Positions 1 to 58,201 of a stretch of 64,000 nucleotides of DNA are shown one piece after another. Under the pieces are notes generated by a model, which did not search any database, was not told the origin of the DNA, and worked only from the letters and a program-made list of their open reading frames with translations. The first letter of the stretch is position 1; every line of letters starts with the position of its first letter. The DNA comes from Calditrichia bacterium. GTDB taxonomy: Bacteria > Calditrichota > Calditrichia > RBG-13-44-9 > J075. The position numbers and the translations under genes are program-made. The stretch is from positions 62,001 through 126,000 of the forward strand of contig JANQRS010000032.1 in assembly GCA_028284445.1 (NCBI GenBank), given 5' to 3'.

Positions 1-166
1 CACGTAGTTTGGCCTCGTTGAGGTTCGACGCGTGGAGATCAGCACCACGCAGATCAGCACCGCGCAGATCAACACCACGCAGGTCGGGGTGAGTAATGCC
101 GCGTCGGCGCTTATTCCAGACTTTAACGCCTTGGTTGAGAATTGCTAAATGTTCTGCATTTGCCAT
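1..166 (-). CDS. Pentapeptide-repeat protein, N-terminal part
   Basis: The reverse strand reads from an ATG at 166 off the left edge of the window. The visible 55 residues begin MANAEHLAILNQGVKVWNK and continue into the pentapeptide pattern A(D/N)LR, with units such as GVDLR, GADLR and GADLH. Such repeats fold into a right-handed quadrilateral beta-helix; the function of individual family members is usually unknown. The N-terminal segment before the repeats is typical of short stand-alone pentapeptide proteins. The C-terminus is missing, so length and domain content cannot be judged. It is divergent from the resolvase-like gene at 390, with about 220 bp between them. Whether it belongs to the phage or to flanking DNA cannot be decided from this window. 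Confidence 0.75.
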   Translation of the reverse strand, partial: MANAEHLAILNQGVKVWNKRRRGITHPDLRGVDLRGADLRGADLHASNLNEAKLR

Positions 167-55759: not shown

Positions 55760-56272
55760 TTATTCTTCCTCTTCTTCTTTCGTGGCAGCGCGCTCAGCCA
55801 TTTCGCCATCAAGCATATAGAGGCCAACACCGTTGTCGCCGATTAGCTTCAGCTTGTCGATAATGAGCTGCATCTGGGTTTCTTCCTCAAGCTGTTCATC
55901 GACAAACCACTGCATCAGATTCATGGTGCGAAAGTCATTTTCCTCACGCGCCAGCTTCATAATGTTATTGATTGATGCAGTCACTTTCTTCTCGTGTCCA
56001 AGAGCAATCTCGAAACACTGACCTACATTTTCAAAATCCGCAGGCGGTTCGTTAACGCCCGGAGAAATAGCCTGGCCTTCATTTTCATTGACAAACATGA
56101 AGATCTTCATCATATGCTCGCGCTCTTCTTCCGCCTGTGCATAGAAAAATGCCGCCGTTCCCGGAAAACCCTTTTGGTCACACCAGGATGCCAATGAGAG
56201 GTAGTAGCTGGACGCATACGCTTCCATCACAATTTGATCGTTTAAGGCCTTGTTCAGAGTGGATGATAACAT
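55760..56272 (-). CDS. ftnA: Bacterial ferritin (FtnA-type)
   Basis: A 170-residue four-helix ferritin. Ferroxidase ligands Glu17, Glu50, His53 and Glu94 are present, with Gln127 and Glu130 (FVDEQLEEE) as in FtnA. No haem-binding Met of bacterioferritin is apparent. It stores iron as ferrihydrite in a 24-mer. The C-terminus is a run of Glu. A Fur-like palindrome lies about 50 bp upstream. Confidence 0.93.
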   Translation of the reverse strand: MLSSTLNKALNDQIVMEAYASSYYLSLASWCDQKGFPGTAAFFYAQAEEEREHMMKIFMFVNENEGQAISPGVNEPPADFENVGQCFEIALGHEKKVTASINNIMKLAREENDFRTMNLMQWFVDEQLEEETQMQLIIDKLKLIGDNGVGLYMLDGEMAERAATKEEEEE

Positions 56273-56322: not shown

Positions 56323-56343
56323 AATCGATAATGATTATCGATT
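56323..56343. promoter_or_regulatory. Fur-box-like perfect palindrome
   Basis: A 21-bp palindrome AATCGATAAT-G-ATTATCGATT, 51 bp upstream of the ferritin ATG. It contains the GATAAT-N1-ATTATC core of Fur boxes. It lies between divergent ferritin and the ATPase gene at 56428 and might influence both. Confidence 0.6.
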
Positions 56344-56427: not shown

Positions 56428-57276
56428 ATGAGATTTTTCAGCATTCGTCCGCCATCATTCAATGGGTTGGTCCGCCTTGGAAATGGGTTACAGCAACCAT
56501 CCTCCGGCACGGCAGTTTTCCATAGCGAATTCCTGCGCCCGTACTGCGTGGCGTATCTCGATCAGCTTTTAAGGAATGACGACACTCTGCAATATATACG
56601 GTCAGAATATCCGACGGTCAATCGCTATTTGAAGCAGGTGGGATTTGATCACCTGGCCCCGGATTCGGAAATAAGCAATCCCTTTCCGACGGAGAATATG
56701 ATTGCCCTGACAGCATTTAACGGAGATTTAAATGACCTGGCGGAAGAAGTCCCCTTTTGGTTGGAGCAACAGTTATTTTCCCGCTCCTTTGCGCCGAACT
56801 TTACGCCGCCTCTCCGGCGCAAAATTGTCAAGAATTTATGGGAAATTGTATGCAATGCTATCCAGCACAGCGATTCGGTTCATGGGGCCAGCTGCTGCGG
56901 GCAATTTTATCCGGAAAAAGGATATTTCGAAATTGCCTTTTACGATCACGGCCTTGGCATTCCCCAACAGCTGCGTCGCCACTTCGACAAGGCCAAAAGC
57001 TGGTCTGATGTTGAATGCATTGCCTGGGCATTGCGCAAAGGCACCAGCACCCATCCACTACGGGAGACCCGAGGCATGGGCTTGTTTTACCTTCGCAACT
57101 TCCTTACATTAAACGGCGGCTGGCTTCAGGTTGCCTCCGGCAGAGGCATCTATCAGTCCGAAGGTGAGCGCGTCCAGGCGCCGGTGCAGATTGCAGAACG
57201 CTTTCAGGGCACCTTATTTAATTTGAGAATCGTCTATGACGATGAGATGTACAGTACAGTTTCAGAAAGACCATGA
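56428..57276 (+). CDS. GHKL-type ATPase-domain protein
   Basis: A 282-residue protein. Residues 1-120 are an unrecognised alpha/beta region (VFHSEFLRPYCVAYLDQLLR; TENMIALTAFNGDLNDLAEE). Residues about 125-260 form a GHKL/HATPase domain: N-box KIVKNLWEIVCNAIQHSDS, G1 box FYDHGLGIP and a G2-like RGMGLFYLRNFLTLNGG. It lacks a dimerisation/phosphoacceptor helix, so it is not a classical histidine kinase. It is more like SpoIIAB/RsbW or GHKL conflict proteins. It overlaps the next gene as ATGA. Confidence 0.8.
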   Translation: MRFFSIRPPSFNGLVRLGNGLQQPSSGTAVFHSEFLRPYCVAYLDQLLRNDDTLQYIRSEYPTVNRYLKQVGFDHLAPDSEISNPFPTENMIALTAFNGDLNDLAEEVPFWLEQQLFSRSFAPNFTPPLRRKIVKNLWEIVCNAIQHSDSVHGASCCGQFYPEKGYFEIAFYDHGLGIPQQLRRHFDKAKSWSDVECIAWALRKGTSTHPLRETRGMGLFYLRNFLTLNGGWLQVASGRGIYQSEGERVQAPVQIAERFQGTLFNLRIVYDDEMYSTVSERP

Positions 57277-57635
57277 GCAACACTATTCACGTTTGTCAAT
57301 TGCTGGGAAGCCGTTCCCTGCTATCTCCTGAAAAGGGCCGTCAGCTTTTCGAAAAAATTAGCGAGCTGTTGAAAGAAGATAGCAGCATTGTCCTCGACTT
57401 TGCAGATTGCCAATATCTATCCAGTTCCTTCTTTAATGAATCGATCGGCAAGCAACTCATCGAGCGGCGTTGGACGGCTGCAGAACTCCAAGATCAAATC
57501 CGTTGGGAAAACCTCGCGGAAGATGATGAAGTTGATCTGCTCCTGGCCATCGAAAATGCTGTTACCAAGCTGCATTTGATCGAAAAAGATATTGATCCGG
57601 ATGATTTTTATGAAAACAATTTGCCGGATAGCTAA
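57273..57635 (+). CDS. STAS-like protein (DUF4325 type)
   Basis: A 120-residue protein matching the DUF4325 STAS-like pattern: RSLLSPEKGRQLFEKISELL, IVLDFADCQYLSSSFFNESI and LIENLAEDD-type segments toward the end. The SSSFFNESIG segment occupies the place where STAS anti-anti-sigma proteins have their phosphorylatable Ser. With the preceding GHKL ATPase it forms a probable switch pair. It overlaps both neighbours (ATGA and TAATG). Confidence 0.7.
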   Translation: MSNTIHVCQLLGSRSLLSPEKGRQLFEKISELLKEDSSIVLDFADCQYLSSSFFNESIGKQLIERRWTAAELQDQIRWENLAEDDEVDLLLAIENAVTKLHLIEKDIDPDDFYENNLPDS

Positions 57636-58201
57636 TGGCAAAGCGGCTAAACATCGAAGAGCTACTCCGCTCTACAAATACACATCCCATCGAGCGAATA
57701 TTGGTCGATACCAATGTGGTGATCAACCATAAGAATCCCTTCGGCTACGTGTCTCCGGCCTTCAACAGCAAGGTAACGCGCGTCGTGAATCGCCTACAGC
57801 AGAAATTCCCTCTGAATGCCACATTAATGACAGCAAGCGAGTATTTCCGCTATCTGCAGGTTGGCTACTACAACATTTTTGTGAAAACCCAAAAGGTCAA
57901 ATATAAGAAATATTCAGCAGGTCAATTTAAACGTTTACGAAAGAATGACGAGGAGTTTGCGCGGGGATGGGATTTGCGCTTGCGCTCATTTCGTCTGACA
58001 TTCACGCAGCTATTTCCACCCTTTCATCCGTCGGCATCCATATTTAATGAAAATATTATTGCGCAATTCGACGGGGCACAGGTCGATTTTGGAGACGAAG
58101 TGTTTTACCAGATTGCCCTGCAAACCGGCTTTCCGGTGATCCTCACAACTGACCGGGATTTTGCGGCGTTCCGCGATGATTTGAATATTATTTTGATTTA
58201 G
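57635..58201 (+). CDS. PIN-like ribonuclease domain protein
   Basis: A 188-residue protein with a PIN-type acidic set: Asp in ILVDTNVVIN, Glu in MTASEYFRYL, Asp/Glu in VDFGDEVFYQIALQTG and Asp in ILTTDRDFAAF. The middle (SAGQFKRLRKNDEEFARGWD) is longer than in VapC toxins. It is the third member of a strictly overlapping operon with a GHKL ATPase and a STAS-like protein, so RNA cleavage may be gated by the ATPase/STAS pair. No antitoxin-like gene is beside it. Confidence 0.7.
   Translation: MAKRLNIEELLRSTNTHPIERILVDTNVVINHKNPFGYVSPAFNSKVTRVVNRLQQKFPLNATLMTASEYFRYLQVGYYNIFVKTQKVKYKKYSAGQFKRLRKNDEEFARGWDLRLRSFRLTFTQLFPPFHPSASIFNENIIAQFDGAQVDFGDEVFYQIALQTGFPVILTTDRDFAAFRDDLNIILI

What the first reader, a model, noticed from the sequence alone, without database searches (positions are those of the whole stretch)
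56428..58201. GHKL ATPase, STAS-like and PIN nuclease in one overlapping operon
Three genes overlap by ATGA and TAATG. A GHKL ATPase without histidine-kinase features and a DUF4325 STAS-like protein form a likely switch, and the third is a PIN ribonuclease with an intact acidic set. This resembles a partner-switch module wired to an RNase effector, perhaps in stress response or phage defence. I know of no described system with exactly this trio.
Basis: partly seen in the sequence, partly recalled or inferred. Interest (0 to 1): 0.62.

Follow-up and report, generated by a model that had tools for sequence, protein, structure and literature searches.

The report
A VapKSC phage-defence toxin–antitoxin operon
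These three overlapping genes are a member of VapKSC, a bacterial self-poisoning switch described in June 2026, in which a DNA-damage-sensing kinase phosphorylates an antitoxin so that it lets go of an RNA-cutting toxin; the system is now known, but this copy is an unusually divergent one.

Summary
In detail: three intact, overlapping genes (56428-57276 STAS-GHKL kinase, 57273-57635 DUF4325/STAS-like, 57635-58201 PIN) form one operon. The trio is conserved as a unit: another genus of the same family, Deinococcus, Desulfobacterota, Proteobacteria, Bacteroidota, other MAGs and an E. coli prophage region carry it. The PIN acidic set is invariant. The trio is not new. A profile search hit PDB 9z7o, 'Escherichia VapS-VapC', which led to Chambers et al. 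(EMBO J, June 2026, PMC13373217). They named the operon vapKSC: ssDNA is inferred to activate VapK, phosphorylation of VapS is thought to release VapC, and the operon protects E. coli from a phage. The residues tested there are present at the aligned window positions: VapK F54 = F35, VapS S48 = S51, VapC D28 = D25. Apparent additions here: vapKSC nested inside type-3-like BREX operons; VapS-like proteins with no VapC neighbour lack the inhibitory tail; the window copy sits at a ferritin-malQ junction that is empty in four relatives; the same contig carries a CapK-CapS-like locus.

The parts
56428..57276 (+). vapK: degenerate N-terminal STAS domain + GHKL kinase domain; E139/N143/H147 N-box, D173-G-G177 and G216-x-G218-L; F35 = Escherichia VapK F54 (putative ssDNA-stacking residue)
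57273..57635 (+). vapS: DUF4325 STAS-like antitoxin; S51 = Escherichia VapS S48 (phospho-acceptor), C-terminal tail ~97-120
57635..58201 (+). vapC: PIN-domain toxin; D25 = Escherichia VapC D28; D25, E69, D151, D154, D173, D175 invariant
56530..56532 (+). codon of VapK F35 (equivalent of F54/CapK W68; F or W in all 15 aligned homologues)
57423..57425 (+). codon of VapS S51 (Ser or Thr in all 17 aligned homologues)
57707..57709 (+). codon of VapC D25 (catalytic Asp)
55760..56272 (-). ferritin gene, divergent neighbour; not part of the system but marks the insertion site (ferritin next to malQ without the trio in four relatives)

Best explanation
The operon is a vapKSC toxin-antitoxin/abortive-infection system. 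At rest VapS (DUF4325) binds the PIN toxin VapC, its C-terminal tail reaching the active site, and keeps it off. When single-stranded DNA builds up after DNA damage or phage infection, it binds between the STAS and GHKL domains of VapK, which then phosphorylates VapS on the serine at the start of its second helix (window S51). Phospho-VapS lets go of VapC, and the freed nuclease stops growth, probably by cutting tRNA or rRNA. Shown here: gene order, conservation, co-divergence and presence of each critical residue. Inferred from the Escherichia system: ssDNA as signal, phosphorylation, release and toxicity. RNA as target is inferred there too.
For: Profiles of the homologues hit PDB 9z7o: VapS E 6e-23, VapC E 7e-17. 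The full E. coli vapKSC was fetched (L098); window VapK and VapS match it pairwise at E 2e-23 and 9e-14. F54, S48 and D28 map to window F35, S51 and D25; VapK numbering agrees once the in-frame ATG at L098:4651, five codons upstream of the annotated start, is used. F35 column F/W in 15 of 15, S51 column S/T in 17 of 17, acidic set 13 of 13. All 14 VapC-profile loci lie next to DUF4325, 12 of 14 with the kinase too. K, S and C distances co-vary, r 0.97-0.99. Neighbours elsewhere are defence genes: BREX, type I and IIG restriction, PDC-S02. Mechanism, toxicity, antitoxin, S48E and phage protection: PMC13373217.
Against: Window VapC is not significantly similar to E. coli VapC pairwise (E 0.16); the link rests on profiles, context and the acidic set. 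The N-terminal STAS of window VapK is shortened around strand 2. No confident defence genes among ten window neighbours scanned (only weak matches, to the SbcD-like nuclease gene). Foldseek on the kinase model gave generic GHKL hits, not SpoIIAB/RsbW, and on the VapS model only weak STAS hits (RsbS prob 0.90, E 0.15). ssDNA activation was not shown directly even for Escherichia VapK.
Confidence: 0.9

Rival explanations
1. Same parts, different wiring: VapK is a binding partner that strips VapS from VapC without lasting phosphorylation, or answers to a signal other than ssDNA, as in classical sigma-factor partner switches.
For: SpoIIAB/RsbW-type kinases work by both binding and phosphorylation (general knowledge); window VapK has a truncated STAS domain, the half of the proposed ssDNA groove that differs most. 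The ferritin-vapK intergenic region holds a Fur-like palindrome, so an iron link is conceivable.
Against: F35, the N-box and S51 are all kept; S48A and F54A abolish protection in Escherichia; the Fur-like palindrome is not seen in the G032 intergenic region and more likely serves ferritin.
Confidence: 0.15
2. A vertically kept chromosomal stress module rather than a phage-defence system in this lineage.
For: Window and G032, different genera, share the ferritin-side flank and differ about as much in the trio (45-64% identity) as in ferritin (67%); none of the ten neighbours scanned is a confident defence gene.
Against: Elsewhere the same trio is in a plasmid, a prophage region and defence operons; absent from 38 of 40 genomes of the phylum by the VapC search.
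Confidence: 0.3
3. Chance neighbourhood of an orphan kinase, an orphan STAS protein and an ordinary VapC.
For: Kinase and PIN are below Pfam cut-offs individually.
Against: Conserved order across many phyla, overlapping genes, co-divergence, and a crystallised S-C complex.
Confidence: 0.01

Closest known systems
VapKSC (Chambers et al., EMBO J 2026, PMC13373217; PDB 9z7o)
   Same: Gene order K-S-C, STAS-GHKL kinase without HTH, STAS antitoxin with Ser/Thr acceptor and C-terminal tail, PIN toxin with the same acidic set; residues F54, S48, D28 conserved.
   Different: Window proteins are divergent (25/27/15% identity to E. coli in multiple alignments), VapK STAS is shortened, VapC is shorter at its C-terminus; host is a Calditrichota-family genome and the operon is not in a recognised defence island.
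CapK-CapS regulators (same paper)
   Same: GHKL kinase plus STAS substrate; a CapKS-like pair is present elsewhere in this genome (L086).
   Different: CapS is a DNA-binding repressor (STAS-wHTH) and CapK has an HTH; the window proteins have neither and carry their own effector.
VapBC type II toxin-antitoxin
   Same: PIN-domain toxin neutralised by a protein encoded next to it.
   Different: Antitoxin is a STAS-like protein released by a kinase, not a labile DNA-binding VapB.
SpoIIAB-SpoIIAA / RsbW-RsbV partner switches
   Same: Same kinase and STAS logic and same acceptor serine position.
   Different: Output is a nuclease toxin bound directly by the STAS protein, not a sigma factor; three-dimensional searches here were not specific for these families.

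Membership tests
VapKSC | Three-gene operon kinase-STAS-PIN in that order | tested here: met
   same order in L010, L008, L011-L019, L028, L098
VapKSC | VapK: STAS + GHKL, no N-terminal HTH | tested here: met
   STAS half recognised by Pfam in only 2 of 15 members and shortened in the window
VapKSC | VapK aromatic equivalent to F54 (putative ssDNA site) | tested here: met
   window F35; F/W in 15 of 15
VapKSC | VapS absolutely conserved Ser/Thr equivalent to S48 | tested here: met
   window S51; S/T in 17 of 17
VapKSC | VapS C-terminal tail that inhibits VapC | tested here: met
   tail present in window (97-120, helix 109-115 predicted) and in trio VapS; missing in four of the VapS-like proteins without VapC
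VapKSC | VapC PIN active site including D28 | tested here: met
   window D25 and five further acidic residues invariant
VapKSC | ssDNA/DNA-damage activation, phosphorylation, toxicity, phage protection | not testable with these tools
   needs the bench; shown or inferred for the Escherichia system only
CapKS | S protein has a wHTH DNA-binding domain | tested here: not met
   window S is a 120-aa DUF4325 protein whose predicted structure ends in helices, no wHTH
VapBC | VapB-type DNA-binding antitoxin | tested here: not met
   partner is DUF4325
Two-component histidine kinase | Dimerisation/phospho-histidine domain next to the ATPase | tested here: not met
   only HATPase_c found; N-terminal part is STAS-like

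The most novel reading that the evidence does not exclude
vapKSC is not only a stand-alone defence system but a recurrent built-in fail-safe of type-3-like BREX: in Desulfobotulus and Desulfamplus it lies inside a brxC-pglX-brxH-pglZ operon (partly seen in Nitrosomonas too), so that failed restriction, which leaves ssDNA, would trigger the VapC toxin. The window copy would be a stand-alone, divergent branch of the same module.
Probability: 0.3. Interest if true: 0.5.

Novelty: new member of a known kind. Interest (0 to 1): 0.33.

Why it matters
It extends a newly described defence system to a deep-branching, poorly studied phylum. It also ties Pfam DUF4325 'of unknown function' to an antitoxin/kinase-substrate role: one profile links the solved VapS to the trio proteins and to kinase-paired relatives without VapC. 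The nesting of vapKSC inside BREX suggests a concrete, testable link between restriction failure and programmed growth arrest.

Tried and rejected
Pfam and PADLOC scans alone did not name the system; the PADLOC DrmA hit to the kinase is a shared GHKL-like segment, not DISARM membership. Foldseek on the kinase model returned generic GHKL ATPases and on the VapS model only weak STAS hits. First paper searches with 'DUF4325', 'STAS-like' and 'GHKL' found nothing useful; the PDB profile hit gave the name that opened the literature. tblastn for E. coli-type VapC in plasmids and phages: none. An archaeal vapKSC (L011) rests on a 4.2-kb contig of one MAG and on 1 of 293 genomes of that phylum, so it is treated as probable mis-binning. 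A Foldseek search of the PIN protein and a scan of metagenomes were not run. Pattern scans sample homologues through one or two short motifs, so the counts here are not a census.

Full report
Observation. The three genes exist exactly as described: 56428-57276, 57273-57635 and 57635-58201 on the + strand, overlapping by ATGA and TAATG. Pfam recognises DUF4325 clearly (E 9e-9), and HATPase_c and PIN only below their curated cut-offs, so the proteins are divergent. Profiles built without the window or its nearest relative still pick the three window proteins, and nothing else in the window, at E 7.6e-41, 2.8e-15 and 7e-11. The finding is real.

Conservation. In the same family a second genus (G032; record L010, titled Calditrichia bacterium IP29b_bin.38) has the same trio in the same order at 55/64/45% identity. 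Outside the phylum the trio is on a Deinococcus gobiensis plasmid. A genome scan through a single kinase motif found it in Desulfobotulus, Desulfamplus, Desulfovibrio, Nitrosomonas, an alphaproteobacterial MAG, a Spirochaeta MAG, Candidatus Rifleibacterium, Polaribacter and Ferruginibacter, plus one short archaeal-binned contig. A search of 395 genomes of the Desulfobotulus phylum (the sample 'phylum of G040') with the PIN profile gave seven genomes with a hit. Pooled with ten genomes reached through the earlier loci, all 14 PIN loci lie beside a DUF4325 gene, and 12 of the 14 also beside the kinase. Distances between loci agree closely among the three proteins (r 0.97-0.99, Mantel p 0.0002). 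That measure does not remove shared species history, but it fits a co-inherited unit.

Identification. Profiles of the DUF4325 and PIN homologues hit one PDB entry, 9z7o, chains 'Escherichia VapS' (E 6e-23) and 'Escherichia VapC' (E 7e-17). The matching paper is Chambers et al., EMBO J, June 2026 (PMC13373217). It names the operon vapKSC, reports 289 instances, 36% within 10 kb of a known immune gene, a VapS2-VapC2 crystal structure, toxicity of VapC but not D28A, neutralisation by VapS that needs residues 94-116 and is lost in S48E, and about 100-fold protection from phage Bas42 that needs D28, S48 and VapK F54. Kinase activation by ssDNA was shown for the related CapK and is inferred for VapK.

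Membership. A complete E. coli vapKSC was fetched from strain JNE25-001, where it lies between mntR and prophage tail genes; it is in 2 of 5,426 E. coli genomes at the sensitivity used. Window VapK and VapS match its proteins directly (E 2e-23, 9e-14); VapC does so only through profiles (pairwise E 0.16). VapS S48 aligns with window S51, and VapC D28 with D25. The annotated E. coli VapK places the conserved phenylalanine at 49, but an in-frame ATG five codons upstream (L098:4651) makes it F54; it aligns with window F35. That column is F or W in 15 of 15 kinases, the S51 column S or T in 17 of 17 STAS proteins, and the PIN acidic set is invariant in 13 of 13. All features that sequence can test are met. 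The rest need the bench.

How it most likely works. VapS holds VapC inactive, its tail near the active site. ssDNA from damage or infection activates VapK. VapK phosphorylates VapS at S51, the complex falls apart, and VapC stops growth, probably by cutting tRNA or rRNA. For the window copy every step after 'the parts are there' is inferred from Escherichia.

Structural checks. The VapS model is confident (pLDDT 92), with S51 at the start of a helix as in STAS phospho-acceptors; Foldseek lists RsbS, RsbV and SpoIIAA among weak hits. The kinase model (pLDDT 82) hits GHKL ATPases in general, so fold comparison alone does not single out the anti-sigma kinases.

Context and apparent additions to the published picture. 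(1) In Desulfobotulus the trio lies inside an operon whose genes match BrxF, BrxC, PglX, BrxH, PglZ and BrxA; in Desulfamplus it lies between two PglX-type genes of an operon with BrxC, a BrxH-like gene and PglZ; in Nitrosomonas it is flanked by PglX and BrxH with PglZ and BrxA beyond, the front of the operon not identified (the Desulfamplus BrxH-like gene is named from its first residues only). The paper's main text mentions BREX only for other regulators; its supplementary tables were not seen, so this may be listed there. Type IIG and type I restriction genes and a PDC-S02 gene flank other copies. (2) Four VapS-like proteins paired with a kinase but without VapC nearby (Streptococcus L020-L022, Undibacterium L023) are 96-99 aa, against 107-123 aa for trio VapS, and lack the tail that inhibits VapC. 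(3) In four family relatives ferritin adjoins malQ with no trio, whereas in the window the trio and three further genes lie between them, which fits insertion at that junction; the shared ferritin side in G032 suggests an acquisition older than the split of the two genera. (4) On the same contig, about 85 kb away, is a CapK-CapS-like pair followed by metallo-beta-lactamase-fold, E1-E2/JAB and reverse-transcriptase genes, with an integrase upstream.

Verdict. Real, correctly described and functionally well guessed, but the system has been published. New member of a known kind, divergent and in a phylum not named in the paper's main text; moderate-to-low interest, raised a little by the BREX nesting.

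Noticed in passing
L086 1114-9623 (G000:C79 about 25.1-33.6 kb, same contig, outside the window): CapK-like STAS-GHKL + CapS-like STAS-wHTH pair followed by a metallo-beta-lactamase-fold gene, an E1-E2/JAB gene (ubiquitin-like pathway), a Csx27-like small membrane protein, a second MBL gene and a UG21-like reverse transcriptase; a tyrosine integrase lies upstream. Looks like a CapKS-controlled ubiquitin/RT defence island.
   Followed up: partly
L099 25-16313; L100 527-19696; L101 3098-13679: vapKSC lies between pglX and brxH (L099, L101) or between two pglX-type genes (L100) of type-3-like BREX operons in Desulfobotulus, Desulfamplus and Nitrosomonas; brxF only confirmed in L099, brxA in L099 and L101.
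   Followed up: partly
L009 4545-5734, L020 4602-5794, L021 3784-4973, L022, L023 2397-3613: Kinase-STAS pairs without a PIN gene (some in streptococcal prophages right after the lysin); their STAS proteins are shorter and lack the VapC-inhibiting tail, so their output is probably different.
   Followed up: partly
L024-L027: Patescibacteria/CPR genomes carry a divergent GHKL + STAS-like pair, no PIN gene next to it.
   Followed up: no
L052 980-2001, L053 504-1491: vapS-vapC pair with no kinase gene in the flank read; L053 is close to a contig end.
   Followed up: no
L060, L063, L069, L079, L081 (and similar-length frames in L067, L070, L075, L076, L084): DUF4325 is often the C-terminal part of single-chain proteins of about 345 aa (HTH-GHKL-DUF4325) in the Desulfobacterota sample: kinase and substrate fused, probably regulators.
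   Followed up: no
window 56323-56343: Fur-box-like palindrome AATCGATAATGATTATCGATT between the divergent ferritin and vapK genes; absent from the corresponding G032 region.
   Followed up: partly
L006 570-2357: A GHKL gene with a DUF4325 gene convergent to it, next to a PIN-like gene and an ImmA/IrrE-like gene, in a same-order genome: a differently arranged relative.
   Followed up: no
PADLOC model PDLC02567 (DrmA, 1750 positions): Its N-terminal 59-274 matches VapK/CapK-type kinases, suggesting that some DISARM DrmA proteins carry a fused kinase-like domain.
   Followed up: no
L054, L055/L056: Two genomes of the Desulfobacterota sample carry a vapKSC close in type to the E. coli one, next to housekeeping genes (tRNA adenosine deaminase; glyQS).
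   Followed up: no
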